Made by a program: the position numbers and the translations under genes | Notes under the pieces: generated by a model | Told to the model about the DNA's origin: nothing | The model's database searches: none | Seen by the model: only the letters and a program-made list of their open reading frames with translations | NCBI RefSeq assembly: GCF_000006405.1 | Contig: NW_003205750.1 | Coordinates: 1 to 20,293, forward strand | Reading direction: 5' to 3' | DNA: 20,293 nt | From: Perkinsus marinus ATCC 50983 | Taxonomy: Eukaryota; Perkinsozoa; Perkinsida; Perkinsidae | In this document: positions 709-20,293 of the stretch, piece by piece | How the letters are laid out: each line of letters opens with the position of its first letter | How positions within the stretch are numbered: the stretch's first letter is position 1

Positions 709-948
709 GAAGCCGCCTGTGCACAGGAGATCGGGAGAGGGGTATCGGAGACTTGACGTTCTTTGACGACCTGGCTAGCGCATATCGGTGCCAGGATTCG
801 AGCCTGGGTGGCGCTGATGGTAGATCTGAACTCTACCACTCCGCCAACTAGGCTGCATGAACGTCAAGTCTTCGAGCCCAGGCCTAGCGATCCGTAGTGC
901 CACCGAGGTCACTCAACCGAGTAGGGCACTAGGATCACAGGCCTCTCC
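709..948 (-). repeat. Terminal split repeat, internal copy (B1 in element sense)
   Basis: Second copy of the 240-bp repeat. The recombinase ORF runs 14 bases into it on the minus strand: its TGA stop is at 937-935. It carries the same internal hairpins and tRNA-like boxes as the outer copy (A-box 836-846, B-box 794-804). Confidence 0.95.
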
Positions 949-2263
949 CATCCTCTTCCGACGAGCCTACCTTGTTCCCGCGTGGCCGATGGGGCGTCTT
1001 CGCGGATTTCCGTTTCTTCTCCTTGGGTAAATCCTCTGGTCGCGCCGCACTTCCGGACCCTCCCACGAGCCTCTCCGGTGCCGAAGGAGTGATTAACGGC
1101 TCCGCTGGTGAGTCCAATGTAGGTTTCGGCCCTTCGAACATAGTGCGGGTCAAATCGCTTTGCATGGCGAGTTTGTACGTCCCATCTCGCGAGTATCTTT
1201 CCTGAAGACATCGCGCCGACTTCCACCGACCCATCTCTACGACTTTTCCTTCGTCCACGCATTGGTCGAGAAGCAGTTGTGCCCCAGTACGCCTCAGGCT
1301 ATGCGTGGATACTCGGTTGTTACTCGGCACTCTATCGCTCAGTATCCTTCTGATAATTGTTGTCATTCGCTCCGTAAATGCCTTACGGTCGAGAGGAATC
1401 ACCCTCTCGTCCTCCTGCCTTCCCTTTACCCATTCTACTAGCCGGTGGAATGGGCAAACGGGATCCCTCGGTACTCGGCAGCAACAGCCGATCGCGATCG
1501 TACACCCCTGGCCAAGCTGGTCAGTCTTCGATCGCGCGATGAATATCTCGGCTCTCGCAGCTTCCGCCGACTGGAAAACTAGCGTTACATCCGCTATCGT
1601 TAACGCGAGAAGCTCACTTACTCTCAGCAAGGCAGATATACCCACGAGTATGCCGGTAATGACGCCTTGCTCCGAAGGGTCGGATATACTTGCTACAGCA
1701 CGAACATCCTCGCAACTGAGAGTAGCCGCTCTTCGCTGCTCGAAGATTCCGGACTGGACGCAAAGCTTCTCCGCGGCGCGCAGATAGAGTTTGATCTGAC
1801 CTTCCTCTAAAGGGCTGACGGTTTCTCCTCTTTCTTCTCTAGCCAGCTGCTTCGCGATCCTGCAGTACTGCTCTACTGTCTCGAAGACATAGTTTGCTCT
1901 CACCAAACTTATAATGAATATACAAGCGGTTTCGGCCCGAAACGGGACTGGTTCCTTTCCCGCAATCGTGATGAGCTCGAAGTACTTCGATCGCACATTC
2001 GCATACTTCCTCTGCGTGCTGGCACATCTGGCGCCATCCTTGAATCTCAACACCTCTCTCTCCGTTATCTCAGCCGCCGCCTGACGTGCCAGCTTGAACG
2101 AACCACGTCTCGTTCCCCTCCGGCCAGAGTTCCGCTCAATCGCAATTGACGACCCTTTCGGGGTGGCCGCCGTTTCGGAGGTCGTCTTCCTGACCTTGTT
2201 CCCTGCTCCGAGTAAGTTGGAGAGCTCCGTTTGACACTTGGACGATGGAATTACGAACGACAT
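935..2263 (-). CDS. Tyrosine recombinase of the YR retrotransposon
   Basis: A 442-aa phage-integrase-type recombinase that would insert the circular DNA copy of the element into the genome. Catalytic residues are visible in order: R214 in a LLRVSELL box, K246 in the beta-hairpin (RSKTDQ), H321-x-x-R324 (THSLRR), W347 in GRWKS, and nucleophile Y357 in QERYSRD. Residues of about 60-200 would be the core-binding domain; the N-terminal 60 residues and the last 60 are basic and low in structure. The ATG at 2263 is the first in frame. The TGA stop lies inside the terminal repeat. RT lies 121 bp upstream. A 7-bp hairpin CTGTTAG-G-CTAACAG (2294-2280) and an AACAG splice-acceptor-like site lie 17 bases before the ATG, suggesting expression from its own spliced mRNA. 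Confidence 0.95.
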   Translation of the reverse strand: MSFVIPSSKCQTELSNLLGAGNKVRKTTSETAATPKGSSIAIERNSGRRGTRRGSFKLARQAAAEITEREVLRFKDGARCASTQRKYANVRSKYFELITIAGKEPVPFRAETACIFIISLVRANYVFETVEQYCRIAKQLAREERGETVSPLEEGQIKLYLRAAEKLCVQSGIFEQRRAATLSCEDVRAVASISDPSEQGVITGILVGISALLRVSELLALTIADVTLVFQSAEAARAEIFIARSKTDQLGQGCTIAIGCCCRVPRDPVCPFHRLVEWVKGRQEDERVIPLDRKAFTERMTTIIRRILSDRVPSNNRVSTHSLRRTGAQLLLDQCVDEGKVVEMGRWKSARCLQERYSRDGTYKLAMQSDLTRTMFEGPKPTLDSPAEPLITPSAPERLVGGSGSAARPEDLPKEKKRKSAKTPHRPRGNKVGSSEEDGRGL

Positions 2264-2279
2264 TCTTTCTTACCACGAC

Positions 2280-2366
2280 CTGTTAGCCTAACAGGTATAA
2301 GGCCCCACTCTCACCAACACAACCACTAAGTTAGTTCGAAACGAAACACATCCGGTTCGCACTCAC
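2280..2366 (-). other. Possible intron between the RT and YR ORFs
   Basis: A strong donor (CCG|GTGAGT, from 2366) follows the RT stop by about 18 nt, and an acceptor (CTAACAG|GTC, ending 2280) precedes the recombinase ATG by 16 nt. An 87-nt intron lying wholly in the spacer would remove a hairpin. The acceptor could equally serve a far-upstream donor or a trans-spliced leader. This is inferred from signals only. Confidence 0.35.
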
Positions 2367-2384
2367 CGGTCCTCCATCTAGTTC

Positions 2385-4574
2385 TCATAACCATTTGGCA
2401 GCTATCGGCTGACGGATACTCCGGAGGATTTTATCAATCCTCAGCTCCTTCACGTCATCGAAGCCGCTCCACATATTCCTTGTCACTGTATACCCCGCGC
2501 GAGAGATCGTATCTGCCACTACGTTAGACACACCTTCCACGTGTATGGCCTTCATGAGTGGGGTGGTTAAGGATGGCCGACTCATCGTGAGTAGCCGCAT
2601 CAACTTATTCAGTGCAGCTGACTTGGCGTACAGCTTGCATAAAGCATTCACGGCGGCGGAATTGTCGCACATGACCAGTACCATTTGATCCTCCGGTCTA
2701 GATAGTATACCCACGACGGCGGATAGCAATTCCAGAAAACACATGTGGCCTGATTCTGGTCGGTCCCCTACCCGGAAGGATGGTATATAGTCGGCGATAA
2801 TGGCTTGAACTTCTGCGCAAGTGAAGTCCATATGATACCACTCAATCTTTCGGCCATCTTCTGATACAATCGCCCCTCCGGCGGCCTTCGTGGACGCATC
2901 GCACATGATAACGGCGCGTTCTTCCCCCAAGCTGGGAACCAGGCCGGGGAATGGTGATGCTGTCACATTGTCGAGAATTCCCTTGATATAACTCGCCGCC
3001 TCGGCGAGACTCGATCCTATCCTGATCCTTCGCACCCTGCGACGCTTGACGGCGCCTCGTTCCTTGCTTTTAGGCTCTATAGCCTTGATCACGCCAAAGA
3101 AGGGGCGCAGTTGACTTCGAAGCCTGTGGAAAATGCTTGAGGCCCAGACGAGCCTTCCCAGGGTTTTTTCCACGAGCTGGACGGGAGCGGTCGAAGCTTT
3201 CCGGGACAGCTCTGTCAGAGACTCAATGATGAGGGCTCTCTTTTCCACCGGTAAGACAACTCGCAACCGGGGCAGATCGAGTTCGAAGCCGAGCACTTTG
3301 GGGCCGGAGCTGCAGAAGAACTTGTCGAGAGCAACGTCAACGTCCAGGATAAAGTCGGTTAACAGAAGGACCAAGACGGTGGTACGTGCCATCTTCAACG
3401 TAGTTGGACATCCCCGGTCATCGATATATACCATCGCCCGATCGAATGCCCCACAACACCTTAACATCCTCGAGGCAATCTTTGTCAAGCTGCTTGAGAA
3501 TCTTACGAAGAGAAGAGGAGACGACTCTCCTCCGAACGGGAGGACCTTGTGCCGGTACCTTTTACCGTTCACCGTATTCGTTGTCCACCATGTATCCTGT
3601 TCGTCCAGTCTCACCAATCTGAAAGCTCCACGTATATCGCTCTCGACCCACAGTAGAGGACTTGCATCGCCGCCCGTCCTCGCCCTCTTCAGGCATAGTT
3701 CAGCCAACACTACAGCGCTTTTCGCGTTAGGTAACCGTAAGGTCTCATGTATATGGGGGTCTATGACAGAGTTGACCCCATTACGGCGGAGGTCATCCAC
3801 AAGCCTCACCTTCTTTAGAACCCCATCCTCACCGTAGGATGGAACACATGCCAGGCGGGTTGTCGCCTTGATCCTCCCCTCATCCTCAGGTGCTATAGGA
3901 ACCATTCGTCCGAGCTCTATTTCCTTCTGTATCGTACTCTCCACTTCCTGCGAGAACGTCTCAGCCGAGACATAATTAGTCCAGACCTCACGGGTCACCG
4001 GGTACCAACCATGAGGAGAAGGTTTCTCTTTGGTCGGCCAGCATCCACTGATTGGAATATCGGAGGTGGTCCCAAAAGGGACTCCTCTATCCATGAGGCT
4101 CATGTACGCCACGTCCAGTGGTTCTGAAGTCTCTGATTGCATGGCTTCCAAGATCGCTTGCATGAGCGGAATCCGGATATTCCCACCAGCTGCAGCTTTC
4201 CGTTCGGATACTCCCAAAGTTGTGGCCCAGTTTCGTCGGATCTTCTCCGCCGCCGCGAGCAAAGCCGGCTTGAGTTTTTCGAGGCAGTCACTCTCAGCCT
4301 GGCGCTTTCTTCCGAGTGAGATCCATTCGTCCAGTGCCGTACCGATTTGCGAGGCGCTTATCTCGTCGATAGCCTCCTTAAGTGAGGCTCCGAGCCTCTC
4401 CACCTTGGTCGAAGGGATCAGGTCGCTGTCAGCGTACACGGATGTATCCGCACCAGTTCCATCCACCAAGGATGCTGATTCTCCAACCGCGGCCGCAGCG
4501 CACTTCCGAAGGCCTTCCCTTGCCAGTCCAAGGCATGCTGCCTTAGGATTATCTATCGCCCGTCCAGTCTTCAC
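2385..4574 (-). CDS. Reverse transcriptase with RNase H domain
   Basis: Reverse transcriptase fused to RNase H, making the cDNA of the element. Numbering from the GTG codon at 4574: an N-terminal region of about 200 residues, then RT with motif A Asp D313 (ESDIRGAF), the palm LPFGGESSP motif, and YIDD at 383-386. Next come thumb/connection motifs (SRKAS, LGRLVWAS). RNase H has its four acidic residues D559 (MCDAST), E615 (FLELLSAV), D637 (MCDNSAA) and D688 (VADTISR). No methyltransferase follows. The frame is open up to a stop at 4682-4680 but has no ATG there; the first in-frame ATG is near residue 137, although the open frame extends about 36 codons above 4574. Translation probably relies on splicing, frameshifting or reinitiation. 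A TGTCTCAG|G acceptor ends at 4642. The true N-terminus is unknown. Confidence 0.95.
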   Translation of the reverse strand: MKTGRAIDNPKAACLGLAREGLRKCAAAAVGESASLVDGTGADTSVYADSDLIPSTKVERLGASLKEAIDEISASQIGTALDEWISLGRKRQAESDCLEKLKPALLAAAEKIRRNWATTLGVSERKAAAGGNIRIPLMQAILEAMQSETSEPLDVAYMSLMDRGVPFGTTSDIPISGCWPTKEKPSPHGWYPVTREVWTNYVSAETFSQEVESTIQKEIELGRMVPIAPEDEGRIKATTRLACVPSYGEDGVLKKVRLVDDLRRNGVNSVIDPHIHETLRLPNAKSAVVLAELCLKRARTGGDASPLLWVESDIRGAFRLVRLDEQDTWWTTNTVNGKRYRHKVLPFGGESSPLLFVRFSSSLTKIASRMLRCCGAFDRAMVYIDDRGCPTTLKMARTTVLVLLLTDFILDVDVALDKFFCSSGPKVLGFELDLPRLRVVLPVEKRALIIESLTELSRKASTAPVQLVEKTLGRLVWASSIFHRLRSQLRPFFGVIKAIEPKSKERGAVKRRRVRRIRIGSSLAEAASYIKGILDNVTASPFPGLVPSLGEERAVIMCDASTKAAGGAIVSEDGRKIEWYHMDFTCAEVQAIIADYIPSFRVGDRPESGHMCFLELLSAVVGILSRPEDQMVLVMCDNSAAVNALCKLYAKSAALNKLMRLLTMSRPSLTTPLMKAIHVEGVSNVVADTISRAGYTVTRNMWSGFDDVKELRIDKILRSIRQPIAAKWL

Positions 4575-4621
4575 TTCGATCGAGTCTGCTCTCTCTCGGT
4601 TCGCCTCGCAATATGCCCCAT
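4571..4621 (-). CDS. Short upstream ORF overlapping the RT frame
   Basis: An ATG at 4621 opens 16 codons (MGHIARRTEREQTRSK) whose TGA (4573-4571) overlaps the GTG codon (4574-4572) of the RT frame. It is the only ATG between 4575 and the stop that bounds the RT frame at 4682. It could feed RT by termination-reinitiation or frameshift, or be chance. Only geometry supports it. Confidence 0.25.
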   Translation of the reverse strand: MGHIARRTEREQTRSK

Positions 4622-4682
4622 CGACAGGCCCTTGAGCGTCCCTGAGACAAGGACACTCACACTCGGGGAGGGACTCAAATCA

Positions 4683-5144
4683 ACCTATAGCGCATCGAAA
4701 ATCCGAGGTTGGCGACTTGCCACAGTCGGTTACCGGTCGGAGTACCGGTCGTCCCACCGGATGGGAGCCCAACGAGGACGGTCAAGTTGACTGAGTCAAC
4801 GAGTCCAACCGTCTAACATGGCTAATAAGCCTGCAACTCCGTCCTCACAAGACGCACTTGCTGCGTAGATTCCTCCGTTCTCACGCCGGGGCGATGCCCT
4901 CAGCGGGGGAGCCGAGATTTGATCGCATCAAGGATATTTCGAATCCTTGGCATCGTCTCTCTGCGACTCCGGGTCTCTCAGTCCTCATGCCCACGTGCAT
5001 GAGTAACCAGACCCTTCCACACTGGTCTCCCCTATGCCCTTTCTAAGCATAGCGCACCAGTGACCAACGCAACAACTCAGACTCATTTATCAAGTCATTT
5101 CAAAGGGAACACATCCAGATCACATCATCTGATAACGCTTGGGC
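4683..5144 (-). other. Structured spacer between Gag-like and RT ORFs
   Basis: A 462-bp stretch without a convincing ORF. It holds a nested hairpin at 5020-5062 (CACTGGT pairs with ACCAGTG, with CTATGC/GCATAG inside) and a 7-bp hairpin at 4929-4949 (CAAGGAT / 7-nt loop / ATCCTTG). It is long for a spacer inside a retroelement and may guide translation or splicing of the RT ORF. Confidence 0.5.
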
Positions 5145-6236
5145 TCACTTCTTGACTCGGTCCTTCGTCGACGACCTCGATTCGCCTTCTCTTCTACGCT
5201 TCTCGTGAGAGAACTGGCAGGCGTCACCATACTCGCAGCGGCCTTCGAGGAATCCGTAGCAAATACCACGCTTGCGCTTTCTCCTATCGGTCTTCTTCTC
5301 GCTCTTCATGTTGCTCCTCGTCGTCGATGAACTGGACGATGAGATAGCTCGTGGTTGTCCTGGACGAACCGACTTGAGCTGAGCATCAACTTTTAGCTGT
5401 GCGAACTTGTTACTATTGTTGTAACAGTCAACCAGGCGGACATGAGCTTCGGAGTAGGCGGTCTCCACAAACCGGCGAAAGGCCTCGTCGATGTCCAACG
5501 CTGTTTCCCAACCGTAGGTGGATGCCGCCTGGGCAATCCGGAATCCGTAAGCCTGAAGGGTAAACCAATCTATATCGAGTCGTTTCTCCTTGACTTTGTC
5601 CTCTGTAACAGTGGCGAGCATGACGCCAAGACAGAACCGACTGTAACATTGAGACCACAGAGCCCCACCGATGACGCCCTTCTCCTCTCTCGGAAGAGTC
5701 AAAGACTGCGGCACATCGTTAAGGATAAAGTCGAGCTTCACAGGATCGGAACGACCTAGCTTTGTCGTGTCCTTCTTGGCCTTGCTTTCCACAAGGTCCT
5801 TGAAGTCGATGAAAACCGAGGGATTATCCGTCAGACGCTTCCATATCAGCACCGGTGGCATGAGTTCACTCGCAATGTGGTCGATGCCCACCATTGACTT
5901 CAGAAGCTCGGCTCGTCTACGCATTTGGGCAGCCCAGTCCTTCTCATTGCGAGCTAGAGGGAGAGCTTTTTGGCCTGCAGCGAATAAGTCAACTTGGAAA
6001 CCAGCATCCTTCACGCACGATCTCAATGCACAACCGACCATTATCTTCTTATCTTTCAACTCGTCCGTGGCTATGCCGGTAACCAGAGTTTCCACTTGCG
6101 CATCGGTCAGGTTAGACAACATCATTACTTGTAGCACGTTCTCCTTCTCAAGCTCTGCAGTGACCTTCTCAACCAGGCCGGGCTGCCCATCACAATGACG
6201 TTGAACAATCTCCTTAGCTCCGTCGGACAACGACAT
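5145..6236 (-). CDS. Gag-like protein with C-terminal CCCH zinc finger
   Basis: A 363-aa first ORF in the position of Gag. Most of it (about 1-290) is predicted mainly helical and has no motif I recognise. A basic tract (DRRKRKRG) then leads into a CCCH zinc finger: C326-x7-C334-x5-C340-x3-H344, followed by a basic tail. This finger would replace the CCHC knuckle of ordinary Gag in binding RNA. The ATG at 6236 is the first after the 5' repeat and lies 9 bases from it. A Gag role is inferred from position and nucleic-acid-binding features. The stop is TGA at 5147-5145. Confidence 0.8.
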   Translation of the reverse strand: MSLSDGAKEIVQRHCDGQPGLVEKVTAELEKENVLQVMMLSNLTDAQVETLVTGIATDELKDKKIMVGCALRSCVKDAGFQVDLFAAGQKALPLARNEKDWAAQMRRRAELLKSMVGIDHIASELMPPVLIWKRLTDNPSVFIDFKDLVESKAKKDTTKLGRSDPVKLDFILNDVPQSLTLPREEKGVIGGALWSQCYSRFCLGVMLATVTEDKVKEKRLDIDWFTLQAYGFRIAQAASTYGWETALDIDEAFRRFVETAYSEAHVRLVDCYNNSNKFAQLKVDAQLKSVRPGQPRAISSSSSSTTRSNMKSEKKTDRRKRKRGICYGFLEGRCEYGDACQFSHEKRRREGESRSSTKDRVKK

Positions 6237-6245
6237 TGGATGAGA

Positions 6246-6487
6246 GTAAAGAAACTCGAGGCACGGCCTCGATAACTACATGAACACTCCAGTTCATCAG
6301 TAAACTGATATCATACCCTATGAGAGGTTCACTTAACACATATCCTCTGCGGTGCGTATGAAACTGTGATAACACAACTCCTTGCGCTCGCCTCTGGCTC
6401 GCGCGACAGACGTCGGGATCGTACTAGGCTTTCAGGCTCTCTCCTGTTATGGCTCTTTCACTCTCCGTACCTGAACGGTACTCCCCA
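6246..6487 (-). repeat. Terminal split repeat, 5' copy (A1, leader)
   Basis: Copy of 466-707 at the 5' end of the element. It ends 9 bases before the Gag-like ATG, so it probably holds the promoter and most of the 5' untranslated leader. No TATA-like signal stands out. Confidence 0.93.
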
Positions 6488-14193: not shown

Positions 14194-15344
14194 TCAGTTA
14201 TTATCATCATTATCAAAATCGAACTTCAATCGACGCAACAGTTCAGCGTCTCGAGCGCCACCAATGCGTTTGATATCCGCGTCGGACCAGTCGTAATTCC
14301 CCTTGCCGTTTTTCACACCAAGTCGACCATCACCGACCAACCGTTCACTCCTATCATCGTGGGTATCCCTAAAATGCAGCAAAAAATTAGTCAAAAAATA
14401 CAAAATTTTCGCAGTTACTTTCCGAGTTGAGGGAAAAATCTCGCATGAGTGTCCTCAACGAGATCAAGCCCGGCAAAGTCGTTTTGTTGGAAGGGGCCGA
14501 TCGTGTTAAAACGACGACCAAAACCGTTGTAAACAACAGAGTCGATCGTCTCGGGACTGGCGACACCCAACTTGACGAGATGGAGGCATTCACGGTAGAG
14601 AGCTGCTTGTAGACGGGCACAGACGAAGCCGTCGATCTCCTTATTCATCTGAGGGGAAGAATATCAGGAAAAACAGGAAAATACCGACCGGAAAATTCGT
14701 AATACCGAAAAATTACCATTATGTCCGTAAAAAATGACGACACAGATCTTGAAAAAACGACAAAAAAAATACCTCGCTGAAAAAATAGCATGAAAATACC
14801 AAGAGTGAATACTCACCACTGCTGGCTTCTTGCCGCAACTTTTCAAGAATTTCTCAACTTTCTCAACCGCATCACCATCAGTTTTCCGACCAGGGCAGAC
14901 CTCAACCAAAGGCACCAAGTAAGCTGGACCGATGAAGTGAGCGGCCAGCAGGCGTCCAGGCTTATCGAGTTTAGAAGCGATTTCCGTAACGGAAAGACTA
15001 CTAGTGTTGGTGCACATCACAAAATGTTCCTTCCTGCAGGCATTTTCAATCTGTTTGAAAACACTCTGTTTCACACCAGTGTCCTCAAGTACGGCCTCAA
15101 AAACAAAATCGGCGTTTTTTACTGCGGATTCGATCGACTCAGCAGCATAGATCTCGCCAGGCACTGCAGTAGGGGGAACATGATTTTCCCTTAGGAATTC
15201 TCGTTGATTGATAGCATTCTCAACACCAGCTTTCAAAGCTTCTGAGCTCGTATCGAACATATGCACATGATGGGGACCACCCGCAGAGATGCACGCGGCG
15301 ATACCGCTGCCCATGAGCCCACTACCGATAACGGCAACTTCCAT
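14194..15344 (-). CDS. 3-hydroxyacyl-CoA dehydrogenase-like (HADH/CRYL1 family)
   Basis: NAD-dependent dehydrogenase of the HADH family, which oxidises a 3-hydroxy group (3-hydroxyacyl-CoA, or L-gulonate in CRYL1-type members). Exons: 15344-14817, 14648-14419 and 14368-14194; introns 168 and 50 nt with GTGAGT/CTCAG and GTAACT/TTTAG. Together 933 nt, 310 aa, a normal family length. Residues 6-14 hold the Rossmann GSGLMGSG loop, and D31 follows strand beta2. Catalytic H136 and E148 keep the family 12-residue spacing (AHFIGP...PLVEV), and S115/S116 match the substrate serine. Residues 179-192 (KEIDGFV.ARLQ) begin the C-terminal dimer domain, ending in NGKGNYDW. The usual HFxNP Asn is Gly139, and the Asn of GFxxNR is Ala187. 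No targeting peptide or PTS1 is seen, so it is probably cytosolic. KEIDGFV..RLQ favours the CRYL1-like branch; the substrate is uncertain. Confidence 0.93.
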
Positions 15345-15367
15345 GATGAACAAAAAAAAGACGGCAA

Positions 15368-15377
15368 CTGCAAATTC
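15368..15377 (-). promoter_or_regulatory. Possible splice acceptor before the dehydrogenase ATG
   Basis: GAATTTGCAG on the minus strand ends 23 nt before the start codon, with a T8 run in between. It fits a trans-spliced leader addition site or a 5' UTR intron. Signal-only. Confidence 0.3.
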
Positions 15378-16949
15378 ACGTTGGTTTCATTCGTACACTT
15401 CGGGAACTGCAAATCTGAGCAGCAGTTGAGGAAACCCGACATAGATCTTGACAACACTTTTTGGGAAAAAATGGAAATGATGACGTTTCGTGCGGAGGAA
15501 ATACAGCTGAGGAGAACAAGGGGACATTTTGTGTTCACTCGTAACACAACAGTTTCCTGTAGCGTCGTCCGCCGACTCAAACCCCGGAATAACTGGTGGC
15601 AACTCAACCTCTTGAAGATGGGTTGCATGAGTTGGGCAGCATCAGAACATGGCAAGTGAGAGGCTACACCGAAAAGACTTGGCAAAGGGTGCAATAATCG
15701 GGGCCGATAGTGTACGTGCCACCTTCCGAGGTTTGAGTCAGCCGACGACGCTACATCTTCCTCGATGAGCCTTTTGTATTGGAAACAGCGAAGCGGCGAG
15801 CGGAGCATGTATTGCCACTCGGTGCATTTCCTCGTTCGAGTTGTTCCTCCACGACTACACCAGTTGAGTTCTCGAAACACATACCACTCCAAAGAGTGTA
15901 GTTTATACAGGGCCCATCCTTCTAAACCGGAATATCAGCCAACCTCGAAAGCAGTACTATTTTGAAGATCTCCCTGACTCAGCTCTAGACTCCGTATATT
16001 GGACGATAAGGAGAAAGCTGTGTAGACTCCATTTCTGGAGTGCTTCTCTATAGCGATGGTCCAGCGATATGCAACAAAATTTTTATGGAATGGTAAATCT
16101 GATCTTTCCAGTAAGTTGAATCATGCTTAACCGCGCATACAGCAAAATGGGCGCTACTAACACTTCTCCACACATGTTTCGATAGAGAGTAAAATGATGA
16201 CCATTGGAAAGAAGAGCTCGCCGAGTGCTTCAAAATGGCTGCTGATATTCACATGCGTTGAGAAATGACTATCACTCTGCATATCATGCATAGAATATGA
16301 ATATGATTACTCTATCGTCCGATAGTTGTGTGGTGTGGAATCCGTTTGCCCAATCTGTCCCTCCTAGCTATGGCTAGTAGGAGGTTGCATTCATGTTATT
16401 CCTGCAAATAGTAACGCCCTGGCTAGTGTTATAAGTCAATGTCAAGAGGACTGTGGTGTCGAACAGCGGCCCAACGGGTGGTCACATATACTCCATATTC
16501 ATTGAATCGATAGTTGATATGTGTAACAAGCAACTCTTGATGCGAGTCTGTGTTTCGAAATCGGTTTATCGAACAACCTCATACTCTCATAGCCGTGCGG
16601 GATTAATTCTGTACAGTTACTGTTTGTCCATCATCACCATTACTGCGAATGATCTCTTCATCCCTACAGTGTCGCCATAACATCACCAAAGTCCTACAGT
16701 CTTCTTATGACTATCATTAACGCATCGGGGGTACTCTTATTGCCCTTCTACCATCACACTACATCACTGATGACTGGAGTCTTGATTACTACTCCTCTTA
16801 GGAGCACTTGTCAATGGCCTTCTACAAATAATGTGTTCATGAGCACTACTCTCACGAACACCTCTGACGCTGACGCGCACGCCATGGTGATCGATTTTAC
16901 TTCCCCCAAATTCCAACACTACTTTTTTCTTGAGTTTTTTGCGAATAAG

Positions 16950-17030: not shown

Positions 17031-17696
17031 AACAATCAACTACACCAGACACCAACGAATCAGAACTGTTCCTAGAAAGCTCATCAAAACTACTCAACGA
17101 CTCTTGCCAAACGGAATATAATTGTTACAACAACTGCGTATTATAACTGCGATCGAGCTCATATCATTTTTCCAAGTACGTCTTGTGAACCCTGAGAGAA
17201 CAAAATCCTCATTTGGGAATTTCACTAAACCACAGAATGAAAACTCTACTTTTTACTGCGCAAAATTTCCACTTTACCGAACTAAAGAGTAGCGAAAATT
17301 GATTCCAAAAAATTATAATTATTATTCACTCACTTTTCAATTTAACTGCAATCATTTCACACAGCGACTTTCGCAAGTCCTCGCAAACGCGGGCAACCAC
17401 CATCAAAAATCAAAATCATATTTATCCAGAAACACATAGCGTCTCGACGGGAAAACTCCTCATAAATTTTTCACATATTTCTTGATCAGTTCATCATGTA
17501 AATTCACACGTCACCTTATGAACATCATTCGCCCCCCTATTTTCACAGCTTCAATACCCTCATTTCTCAACAACACCCCCAAACGTTTTTTTCGAGCATT
17601 TACCCATTAAAAATTTCTTTCCCAAATTTTCCGGTTCAAACGAATACCCCCAAAATTTAATGAAATTCCTCTGATATTTTTCAGACGTACTGCTGA

Positions 17697-19924
17697 CTAC
17701 CTAAATGTGAGCGAAACCCGCGGGTAGTGCTTCGAAATATAATTCTCTTTGGTGATCTGATGTAGATAATTCTTCTGCGTATCACCAGCCATGATAACGA
17801 CACTTCCGTTCTCTAGTCGAACATGATACGCAGTATCGGATCTAACACAAAAACGACTTTTAATACAACAGCAACATTTGTTTTTATGCACAATTTCTTC
17901 ACATTAACATTTTGCATACGTGTGAAAACTTATTATGCATAACTGGTAGTTTTCGAATCATTATCATCATCAACACCAGTGAGGGGAATATGCACATGGT
18001 CAACAACTACAATATGAAAATTGTGAGGGAATTTTGGGAAATTTTTTGTACACTCCTACTATAGGTAGTAGGGAAACTCCTGGGCTCAGCTGAGGAAAGT
18101 AAATATATATTCCTCCAATAGTGAGAAAAATAAGCGCTGTTGAGGAAAACACGAAAACCGCGTGGAGGGAAAATATGCACATGGTCATCAACCACATGTG
18201 TTGGTGATGATGACAATATGAAAATTTTAGGAAAATTGTGTCACCAGTCGCGAATGTACATAACAAAAATTTCTACATCTCAAAGAGACTTTCCCAACTT
18301 CTTTTTAATTTCCGCCAAATACAACAATCACAAAAATTACAAAAATACACCTCTTCGGGAGAGCCCAGCCAAAGGTAAGAATAAAGCCAGAAACTTGCAA
18401 GCGGCAATGAACATATAAATGGAGTTTCACCACCCTAGTGAAAAATATATTTCACGACTACTGCGTGTCACCGCGAATATCGCGTTTTTCACCGAAAATT
18501 ACGACGCCACTTCGCGTAAAACGGGTTATGAAACTCCAACAATATGACCAATAAATTGCTCCTCTCATAATAAACTTCATACCAAAATTTCCCAAACTCT
18601 CACCGCATCCATAACAACAATAACAAAAGTTATCAAAACCAGAGCAATGCAATCCTCCCCTTCCCCCCTCTTATTACGGTGCTCCCATCAGTTTTAGTGA
18701 AAATATTCTTTCCGCGCCAAAGCTCACACAAGGGATGGGACAGTCCTCCCGCAATTCAGGTTCGTTATCACTGTGATAAGCAACTCCTAAAATATGGAAA
18801 AATTCCAATTTCGATTATTTATAAATTTTCACTACCCGCCCTTCCAGAGTGATAAACGTTCGCCACACAGTAATTGAAATTAACTTTATCCTCTCCATAA
18901 ATCGGTCTGAGAAAGTGCCTCTAAATTTTTTCCCAAAACCGGACGTTTTAACCCACGCTAAAACGCTCTTCACTCGGTGCATTATACCCAACACAAACGG
19001 CGGAAACGCATCTGCCACATATTCGCTCTCAGAAAAGGTATACCTATCGAAAACCATCATCACCATCACCAACAACCGCTCCAATTCTTCACTTACCGCA
19101 TGCCTTTCGGTGACGAAAATTGCACAATATCTCTACCATAACTCACAGTATTCCAACACACATGCTGTTCACTCATGAGCATTGATAAATATAATTCACT
19201 CTCCTCAACAGAAAATACGCCACTTTGATATCGAACATCACAGCCCAATAACGGGAACCTAAACCCCAAAGATTCATTTCCTGCCCCCGCAACAAGATAC
19301 AAATCAGGTCCGACTTGATCATAGTCATCGGGGGAAATTCCGAACCATGTATAGTAACCAGTGCTCCTGCTCTTCCTTCTTCTTCATGAGCTTCACACGA
19401 TCGCATATCACCAAAGCCATGAGCGAATCGGCACCACTCGCCATGAACACAGCGCCGTCCATGTTCCCAATACCAGCATAGATAGCGCTTATGATGCTTA
19501 TCATCGTTGGAAGAAGTGGATCTGATAGAAATTAATTCAACAAGTTTATGCAACCTTTACGACTACAATTATCTAGAATCTATTCGCATGAATAACTACC
19601 TGGGAAATTTCGGGAAAATATTTTTTTAACCTACCTGGGAAATTTCGGGAAAATATTTTTTTAACCTACCTGGGAAATTTCGGGAAAATATTTTTTTAAC
19701 CTACCTGGTAAATTTCGGGAAAATATTTTTTTACCAGAAACGAAAAAATTCCTTTCACGCACCACAGGTGTTACGAACTCTCGATAAATTGCTCTTCCCA
19801 ATACACTAACCCATCAGTACATCACTTACTCTGAATTGGAGCTTCCATCAGATCTACTGTGCTCGCTTGACCCCACTGTATGAGCTAAGGCTTGATCCCA
19901 CGTCGTAGGCTTTTTATGGAGCAT
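17697..19924 (-). CDS. CCCH zinc finger-AlkB-type 2-oxoglutarate/Fe(II) dioxygenase fusion
   Basis: AlkB proteins remove alkyl groups from nucleic acid by oxidation. Exons: 19924-19830 (from ATG), 19521-19412, 19280-19097, 19043-18974, 18920-18836, 18786-18678 and 17841-17697. Introns are 308, 131, 53, 53, 49 and 836 nt; total 798 nt, 265 aa, in frame. An acidic/Ser N-terminus leads to a canonical CCCH finger (C-x8-C-x5-C-x3-H: CWYWEHGRRC, CVHGEWC, CRFAH). The AlkB fold follows: RYTFSESEY, NFNYCVANVYHSG, iron ligands H and D in AYHSDNEPEL, VSFGAERIF, distal His in TQKNYLHQI, and 2OG-binding arginines in RVSLTFR, where the usual N of RxNxTxR is S. The iron triad is complete. The intron joining exons 2 and 3 (19411-19281) is chosen only because the frame must change there. 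CACAG 17 nt before the ATG may accept a spliced leader. An RNA substrate is inferred from the finger. Confidence 0.85.
18166..18230 (+). repeat. Dispersed repeat X, copy 1
   Basis: Shares GGGAAAnATGCACATGGTCATCAAC and TGTGTTGGTGATGATGACAATA with 20237-20293. Similarity continues leftwards (GAAAAC..CGCG). A shorter relative lies at 17981-18022. The unit folds imperfectly around CACATGTG (TCATCA against TGATGA). Confidence 0.85.
18429..18529 (+). repeat. Dispersed repeat Y, copy 1
   Basis: About 100 bp, strongly similar to 20008-20112. It holds TTTCACGACT, then the 13-base CGCGA-ATA-TCGCG hairpin (18472-18484) and ACGACGCCACTTC. This copy is bracketed by a 9-bp inverted repeat, GGAGTTTCA (18421-18429) and TGAAACTCC (18529-18537). 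It lies in the last intron of the CCCH-AlkB gene. Confidence 0.85.
19522..19829 (-). other. First intron of the CCCH-AlkB gene
   Basis: Donor TTCAGA|GTAAGT and acceptor TTTCTATCAG|A; 308 nt. It joins an upstream exon ending GA with one starting A, giving Glu and keeping frame into the zinc finger. A 35-bp tandem repeat occupies nearly half of it. Confidence 0.8.
19596..19735 (-). repeat. 35-bp intronic tandem repeat, four copies
   Basis: Units start at 19596, 19631, 19666 and 19701 with few differences. On the transcript strand each unit reads a T-rich stretch, then TTTCCCAG|GTAG (TTTACCAG|GTAG in the first-transcribed unit), that is, an acceptor directly joined to a donor-like GT. Confidence 0.9.
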
Positions 19925-19941
19925 CGCTAACAAGAGCTCAC

Positions 19942-20007: not shown

Positions 20008-20112
20008 TCACCCTAGTGATATGAAAAACGTATTTCACGACTGCTGCATATCACCGCGAATATCGCGTTTTTCACCTACTTTTACGACGCCACTTCACGT
20101 AAAACCGATTAC
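20008..20112 (+). repeat. Dispersed repeat Y, copy 2
   Basis: Second copy of the 18429-18529 repeat, same orientation, about 1.58 kb away, with the CGCGA-ATA-TCGCG hairpin at 20055-20067 kept and mismatches elsewhere. It lies just upstream of the first exon of the CCCH-AlkB gene. Confidence 0.85.
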
Positions 20113-20236
20113 GTAAAATAAAAATAAAACTCCAATGTAAAATATCAAATCATCAACATCATAAGCCGCGAGAAATTTACGAATGTCGAAATTAAATTCT
20201 TCGCACTTTATACGATGAATGTGAAAACACTGCGCG

Positions 20237-20293
20237 GGGGGAAACATGCACATGGTCATCAACTGCATGTGTTGGTGATGATGACAATACGAA
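20237..20293 (+). repeat. Dispersed repeat X, copy 2 (cut by window end)
   Basis: Copy of 18166-18230 in the same orientation, running to the window edge. In the left cluster X precedes Y; here Y precedes X, so the two are independent repeats rather than one duplicated block. Confidence 0.8.

What the first reader, a model, noticed from the sequence alone, without database searches (positions are those of the whole stretch)
17697..19924. CCCH zinc finger fused to an AlkB dioxygenase, hidden in seven exons
Seen: a canonical C-x8-C-x5-C-x3-H finger spliced in frame to a full AlkB fold with the H-x-D...H iron ligands and the C-terminal arginines. Known: AlkB homologues remove alkyl groups from DNA or RNA, and CCCH fingers usually bind single-stranded RNA. 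Inferred: an RNA demethylase or repair enzyme with its own RNA-targeting module. I do not recall a characterised protein with this architecture.
Basis: partly seen in the sequence, partly recalled or inferred. Interest (0 to 1): 0.9.

Follow-up and report, generated by a model that had tools for sequence, protein, structure and literature searches.

The report
Zinc-finger AlkB demethylase in Perkinsus
A single-celled oyster-parasite relative carries one gene that joins a zinc finger of a kind known for gripping single-stranded RNA to an enzyme domain of a kind that strips methyl groups off nucleic acids, which makes it a candidate, still untested, for an enzyme that repairs or edits chosen RNAs.

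Summary
The finding is real. One minus-strand gene encodes a CCCH zinc finger followed, in the same reading frame, by a complete AlkB dioxygenase. A Perkinsus olseni protein (P0001, "hypothetical protein") has both domains, aligns along the whole length (245 of 326 identical) and fixes the splice that joins them. Three corrections to the exon model: the finger-AlkB intron is 19314-19259; the ATG at 19924 is internal, because a first exon lies outside the window; the TAG at 17699-17697 lies inside a splice donor, because a last exon lies at 17191-17164. That makes nine coding exons (eight in the window), 330 aa. A second copy in the assembly keeps GT and AG of all eight introns; dN/dS 0.09.

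The finger matches tristetraprolin's first finger; the AlkB domain matches human ALKBH3, then ALKBH2, in sequence and predicted fold. It belongs to an AlkB subfamily that replaces the usual YGD lid motif by QWS/QFS (24 of 24 rows) and rarely keeps the base-reading Asp (1 of 24). The finger is in 2 of 39 rows, both Perkinsus. Best reading: an RNA-directed oxidative demethylase with altered base specificity. RNA binding, activity and substrate are inferred. New architecture of known parts.

The parts
19830..19941 (-). coding exon 2 (first in the window); conserved (E)LLLAML motif then a Ser-rich stretch
   Evidence: acceptor CTTCACAG|GT and donor AGA|GTAAGT, both kept in the C42 copy; ELLLAMLHKKPTTWDQ aligns with P. 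olseni ELLALLKGKPTSWDE
19315..19521 (-). coding exon 3: CCCH finger and linker
   Evidence: linker LVTIHGSEFPPMTMIK conserved in P. olseni P0001
19419..19478 (-). CCCH zinc finger C-x8-C-x5-C-x3-H (CWYWEHGRRCVHGEWCRFAH)
   Evidence: matches tristetraprolin finger 1 (1m9o, E 7e-7) and TIS11d (1rgo, E 1.6e-6); 24 of 29 residues identical to P. olseni over the finger region
19259..19314 (-). 56-nt intron between finger/linker and AlkB domain (GTCGGA...GGTTTAG)
   Evidence: ends identical in the C42 copy; junction equals the P. olseni protein
19097..19258 (-). coding exon 4: start of AlkB domain (FPLLGCDVRYQSG... Q-F-S-S-P lid region)
18957..19043 (-). coding exon 5 (AlkB)
   Evidence: acceptor GATAG, donor GTGGGT, kept in C42
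18836..18906 (-). coding exon 6 (AlkB; FNYCVANVY)
18678..18786 (-). coding exon 7 (AlkB; HSDNEPEL, CVSFGAERIFSL)
18767..18775 (-). iron ligands HxD (His-Ser-Asp), followed by Asn where ALKBH3 has Asp (HSDDE)
   Evidence: H and D in 39 of 39 aligned rows; aligned to ALKBH3 HSDDE
17701..17841 (-). coding exon 8 (AlkB; third His at 17762-17760; PRVSLTFR)
   Evidence: third His in 39 of 39 rows
17164..17191 (-). coding exon 9: completes the last Arg codon, then VHKTYLEK and stop TGA
   Evidence: RVH start of the tail shared with P0001, P0002, P0019, P0026

Best explanation
A nine-exon Perkinsus gene makes a 330-aa protein: two short N-terminal LLxLL stretches, one tristetraprolin-type CCCH finger, a linker of about 30 residues and an ALKBH3-like Fe(II)/2-oxoglutarate dioxygenase. 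Shown by sequence: fusion, splice sites, metal and cofactor residues, purifying selection, orthologue in P. olseni. Inferred: the finger grips short single-stranded, probably AU-rich, RNA and holds the catalytic domain on it; the AlkB domain flips a methylated base in and oxidises the N-methyl group, which leaves as formaldehyde. Because the YGD lid motif is replaced and the base-reading Asp is Asn here (Ala or Ser in most relatives), the base is probably not simply m1A/m3C as in ALKBH2/3. The same genome keeps a separate ALKBH2-like gene that could do duplex-DNA repair.
For: Fused orthologue P0001, 245 of 326 residues identical. GT and AG of all eight introns kept in the second copy. 28 exonic differences between the copies: 20.5 synonymous, 7.5 non-synonymous by path-averaged count, dN/dS 0.093, none of the residue changes inside the AlkB domain. 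Finger nearly as conserved between species (24/29) as the AlkB domain (165/190), against 35/73 in the N-terminus. Finger matches TTP and TIS11d RNA-binding fingers. Closest solved relatives by sequence and by fold are ALKBH3 then ALKBH2; the AlkB part of the P. olseni model has block pLDDT 83-98, mostly 89-98. ALKBH3 demethylates m1A and m3C in ssDNA and RNA (passages of PMC11065319; PMC8254245). Separate ALKBH2-like gene at C212.
Against: No biochemical, transcript or localisation data. Tristetraprolin works with two fingers; a single one may bind weakly. One tristetraprolin stacking Tyr position reads His here (recalled assignment). The finger region of the model is unreliable (block pLDDT 30-39), so finger-enzyme geometry is unknown. 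ALKBH3 prefers single strands of DNA as well as RNA. In E. coli AlkB, changing the equivalent Asp to Asn cuts m1A activity about 200-fold (3.7 to 0.018, as listed), so an m1A eraser is doubtful; yet 7 of 15 other rows carry Asn there too. 22 of the 24 subfamily rows have no finger, so the finger is not needed for the core reaction. The two copies differ in residues outside the AlkB domain, one of them in the finger (E/D, not a metal ligand).
Confidence: 0.55

Rival explanations
1. A DNA-repair AlkB: the domain repairs ssDNA (replication forks, transcription bubbles) and the finger helps it bind ssDNA or R-loops.
For: Closest relatives ALKBH3 and ALKBH2 are DNA-repair enzymes, and most of the best fold matches are their DNA-bound structures.
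Against: Lid motif and base-reading Asp of those enzymes are not kept. A separate ALKBH2-like gene exists. The finger is of the tristetraprolin RNA type.
Confidence: 0.22
2. The finger is a protein- or RNP-docking part, not a substrate reader; the enzyme's own lid chooses the substrate and the finger only places it in an mRNP or on the ribosome.
For: 22 of 24 subfamily rows do without a finger. The N-terminal LLxLL stretches, shared with three finger-less relatives and predicted helical at low confidence, already look like a docking motif.
Against: The finger is nearly as conserved as the catalytic domain and keeps the TTP-like CxFAHG core.
Confidence: 0.18
3. Two neighbouring genes, or a mis-joined gene model.
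For: Finger frame and AlkB frame differ in genomic DNA, and no transcripts were seen.
Against: Co-linear fused protein in P. olseni with the same linker. Splice sites conserved in the second copy. No ATG in the AlkB frame before the domain.
Confidence: 0.02

Closest known systems
Human ALKBH3 (PDB 2iuw, 8jnk, 8jnr, 9ncz)
   Same: Best sequence and fold match; HxD...H, N-x-Y and both Arg kept; single-strand DNA/RNA demethylase of the same fold
   Different: No CCCH finger (recalled); ALKBH3's HSDDE reads HSDNE here and its A-W-Y-G-E lid stretch is replaced
Human ALKBH2
   Same: Second-best match; same catalytic core
   Different: Prefers duplex DNA; this genome has a separate gene closer to ALKBH2
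P. olseni FOZ63_025499 (P0001)
   Same: Same two Pfam domains in the same order, full-length alignment, orthologue
   Different: Uncharacterised; 342 against 330 aa
Finger-less AlkB subfamily (P0002-P0004, P0008-P0026; no organism named)
   Same: Same clade (support 100/99), same QWSxP lid and FNYCV motif, three with the same N-terminal LLxLL stretches
   Different: No CCCH finger found in any of the 22
Tristetraprolin / TIS11d finger 1
   Same: C-x8-C-x5-C-x3-H, CxFAHG core
   Different: Those proteins carry tandem fingers and no enzyme domain
ALKBH8 (RRM + AlkB + methyltransferase; recalled)
   Same: Also an AlkB domain with its own RNA-binding domain
   Different: RRM instead of CCCH; tRNA wobble hydroxylation (recalled); no RRM or methyltransferase match here

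Membership tests
AlkB family (2OG-FeII_Oxy_2) | Pfam PF13532 over its cut-off | tested here: met
   74.2 bits against 31.2
AlkB family (2OG-FeII_Oxy_2) | HxD...H iron ligands and C-terminal Arg pair | tested here: met
   H, D, H in 39 of 39 rows; Arg 38 of 39 and 39 of 39
AlkB family (2OG-FeII_Oxy_2) | AlkB-type double-stranded beta-helix fold | tested here: met
   on the P. olseni orthologue: AlkB part block pLDDT 83-98; 8jnk TM 0.82 by target, E 5e-17
AlkB family (2OG-FeII_Oxy_2) | oxidative demethylation | not testable with these tools
   needs an enzyme assay
ALKBH3 orthologue | best match ALKBH3 | tested here: met
   phmmer E 3e-13 and profile E 6e-21, ahead of ALKBH2
ALKBH3 orthologue | base-reading Asp after the HxD (HSDDE) | tested here: not met
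   Asn in both Perkinsus rows; N 2, A 16, S 5, D 1 of 24; role of the Asp from passages, its residue equivalence recalled
ALKBH3 orthologue | A-W-Y-G-[DE] lid motif | tested here: not met
   Q-[WF]-S in 24 of 24; YG[DE] in 10 of 15 others, read by eye; ALKBH3 reads AWYGE
Tristetraprolin-type CCCH | C-x8-C-x5-C-x3-H spacing | tested here: met
Tristetraprolin-type CCCH | two tandem fingers | tested here: not met
   one finger in the joined protein
Tristetraprolin-type CCCH | binds AU-rich RNA | not testable with these tools
   needs a binding assay
Pfam zf-CCCH families | score over the curated cut-off | tested here: inconclusive
   window protein 14.6 (finger alone 19.8) of 24.6; P. olseni 27.6, over
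ALKBH8 | RRM and methyltransferase domains | tested here: not met
   no such Pfam match at E 1

The most novel reading that the evidence does not exclude
A natural mRNA-directed eraser: a tristetraprolin-like finger aims an AlkB enzyme at AU-rich RNA, and the Asp-to-Asn/Ala/Ser change with the QWS/QFS lid gives this subfamily a base specificity unlike ALKBH2/3 (for example m1G or another Watson-Crick-face methyl), in a lineage where related parasites such as Plasmodium and Toxoplasma have no detected eraser.
Probability: 0.2. Interest if true: 0.75.

Novelty: new variant of a known kind. Interest (0 to 1): 0.52.

Why it matters
If it acts on RNA, it would be an AlkB enzyme that carries its own tristetraprolin-type RNA grip, linking RNA demethylation directly to the recognition of AU-rich message ends in an alveolate. 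A review reports no eraser homologues in Plasmodium or Toxoplasma (PMC9778586, passages read), so an eraser in their relative Perkinsus would be informative. The finger-less relatives with a changed base-reading residue offer a natural experiment on what that residue does; the passages I read probe it with engineered E. coli AlkB.

Tried and rejected
Exon junctions: frame-keeping GT/GC-AG pairs between the finger and AlkB were listed. Short introns with acceptors at 19382-19364 and the CAG at 19281 were rejected because the P. olseni protein shows another junction and because the second copy lacks two of these acceptors (19367 and 19281). My first query protein (298 aa) used a wrong junction (intron 19398-19364); it still found P0001, and alignments from then on use the corrected join. 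The window sequence in A4 and A5 (322 aa) ends at LTFR, before exon 9 was found. A first dN/dS (0.057) used the gene ends 19924 and 17697; with all nine exons it is 0.093, because exons 1 and 9 add residue changes; the larger value is the one reported.

Other fusions: the search with the finger and linker of P0001 had 11 candidates and returned only P0001; the profile search scored the best 8000 candidates and gave 35 proteins, one with a finger by precomputed Pfam. These searches need shared exact words, so a finger fused to another AlkB type could be missed. Of 26 viral AlkB loci, an open frame was picked by a simple rule for 22 and none showed the motif. The genome-contig scan gave 63 pattern matches and no relative, so no prokaryotic source was found at that sensitivity.

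Literature: the listed rows (25 of 744; 1 of 1; 15 of 17; 15 of 608; 15 of 44; 12 of 378; 2 of 2) showed no title or abstract start on a CCCH-AlkB fusion; the library holds open-licence papers only. Passages only were read of PMC9778586, PMC12787238, PMC11312118, PMC3265494, PMC8254245, PMC11065319 and PMC7968990. PMC3265494 (find) has no mention of zinc finger, CCCH or Perkinsus.

Species was not settled: Perkinsus, not P. olseni, is inferred from 75% protein identity.

Full report
What is there. The window is contig C156:1-20293 of a 54.46-Mb eukaryotic assembly. On the minus strand, 19941-17164, lie eight coding exons of a gene whose first exon is outside the window at C156:22389-22314. The join is supported by four lines: (a) a P. 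olseni protein of 342 aa aligned along the whole length, 245 of 326 residues identical with 20 gap columns (P0001); (b) a second copy on contig C42 in the same order with the neighbouring dehydrogenase gene (C42:21346-22361 and 25686-26433), which carries all nine exons, with exons 1 and 2 on one contig without N between them; (c) GT...AG ends for all eight introns, kept in that copy; (d) 28 exonic differences between the copies, 20.5 synonymous and 7.5 non-synonymous by path-averaged count, dN/dS 0.093, with one in-frame 3-base indel. The residue changes lie in the N-terminus (I/L, N/S), the finger (E/D, not a metal ligand), the linker next to the indel (S/P and two more) and the tail (Y/D); none is in the AlkB domain. 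The introns inside the window are 19829-19522, 19314-19259, 19096-19044, 18956-18907, 18835-18787, 18677-17842 and 17700-17192; the first intron leaves the window and in this copy holds a stretch of N. The protein is 330 aa (329 in C42).

The stop lies inside the donor TTTAG|GTAGTC; exon 9 adds VHKTYLEK, and the same RVH start of the tail is in P0001, P0002, P0019 and P0026. The ATG is internal. The acceptor CAG at 19281 is CAC in the C42 copy. The core observation, finger plus AlkB in frame, stands.

The finger. CWYWEHGRRCVHGEWCRFAH has C-x8-C-x5-C-x3-H spacing, one match in the six-frame window against a simulated mean of 0.017. Its best solved relatives are a C3H1-type protein (9y10, E 3e-7), tristetraprolin (1m9o, E 7e-7), a cytoplasmic zinc-finger protein (6nzl) and TIS11d (1rgo, E 1.6e-6). 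A review says CCCH domains bind RNA sequences or structures and that tristetraprolin recognises AU-rich elements through its main chain (PMC12787238, passages). The window's finger is below every Pfam cut-off, the P. olseni one is above that of zf-CCCH_4. Between the two species the finger region is 24/29 identical, the AlkB domain 165/190, the linker 16/28, the N-terminus 35/73. The genome has at least 70 PF00642 matches, so a donor for the finger is easy to imagine; the other finger-like matches to this finger in the genome are only 32-43% identical (six places besides the two copies).

The AlkB domain. The P. olseni model (38-row alignment) has block pLDDT 83-98, mostly 89-98, over the AlkB part and 30-39 over the finger. 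Foldseek's first 25 rows are ALKBH3 and ALKBH2 structures (8jnk E 5e-17, TM by target 0.82); sequence searches agree. In a tree of 39 rows, the two Perkinsus rows fall in a 24-row clade (100/99) on a long stem; the tool warns that long branches meet here, so its wider place is unsure. All 24 rows have Q-[WF]-S where 10 of the 15 others have Y-G-[DE], and at the position after the iron-binding Asp they read A 16, S 5, N 2, D 1. In E. coli AlkB the matching Asp135 bonds to the base; a review lists m1A repair at 3.7 min-1 uM-1 for the wild type and 0.018 for D135N, and D135S or D135T raise m1G repair (PMC11065319, passages; PMC7968990, passages). That Asp135 matches this column rests on recall plus the ALKBH3 alignment. 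So the subfamily probably reads another base, or another form of it, than canonical repair enzymes. Asn also occurs in 7 of 15 other rows, so the Perkinsus residue alone is not diagnostic.

Distribution. The finger occurs in 2 of 39 rows, both Perkinsus (Pfam scan of the 38 without the window gives 1). Tandem LLxLL stretches at the N-terminus (MTNSSGAEILNLLQKG...ELLLAMLHKKP; ELLSLLQKG in C42) are shared with the finger-less P0002, P0019 and P0026, which suggests that the finger was inserted between an old N-terminal motif and the AlkB domain. No prokaryotic relative was found in the one scan made. The same genome has a second AlkB pair (C212, C76). One 113-residue open stretch of the C212 copy is closer to ALKBH2 (E 1.2e-13) than to ALKBH3 (E 4e-9) and has the normal HSDDE; the PF00642 list, itself a lower bound, shows no finger beside either copy.

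How it most likely works. Shown: a fused, conserved gene with intact catalytic residues. Inferred: the finger holds single-stranded, perhaps AU-rich RNA; the dioxygenase oxidises a methylated base within reach of a linker of about 30 residues. ALKBH3 demethylates m1A and m3C in ssDNA and RNA and has been placed in the clearance of m1A and m3C from mRNA with ASCC3 (PMC8254245, passages), so a built-in RNA grip on an ALKBH3-like enzyme is coherent. Against it: one finger only, no assay, and an active site that may not take m1A.

Novelty. The parts are known families; this combination was not seen in the listed rows of the paper searches but is visible in public databases as an uncharacterised P. 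olseni protein. I rate it a new variant of a known kind.

Noticed in passing
window 935-6275 (-): Three adjacent ORFs of a DIRS-like retroelement (label recalled): tyrosine recombinase-like (Phage_integrase, 21.9 bits, below cut-off), reverse transcriptase (31.2 bits, over 29.6) and a gag-like ORF ending in its own CCCH finger (below cut-offs).
   Followed up: partly
window 14664-15386 (-): 3-hydroxyacyl-CoA dehydrogenase NAD-binding domain (152 bits), also next to the AlkB gene on contig C42.
   Followed up: partly
C212:264663-265289 (L004) and C76:236207-236833 (L005): A second AlkB gene pair in the same genome; the C212 copy is ALKBH2-like with canonical HSDDE.
   Followed up: partly
window 19596-19768: 35-base tandem repeat in the intron after exon 2, several copies here, a gap in the alignment with the C42 copy.
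   Followed up: partly
window 18439-18533 / 20022-20116 and 18167-18222 / 20238-20293: Dispersed intronic repeats of 95 and 56 bases; units like the 56-base one also occur several times in the first intron of the C42 copy (by eye).
   Followed up: no
N-terminus: C156:22389-22314 and window 19941-19906: Two LLxLL stretches, kept in Perkinsus and in finger-less relatives P0002, P0019, P0026, predicted helical at low confidence; possibly a docking motif of unknown partner.
   Followed up: partly
proteins P0002-P0004, P0008-P0026: A 22-member AlkB subfamily with QWSxP lid and mostly Ala/Ser at the base-reading position (21 of 22); organisms unknown.
   Followed up: partly
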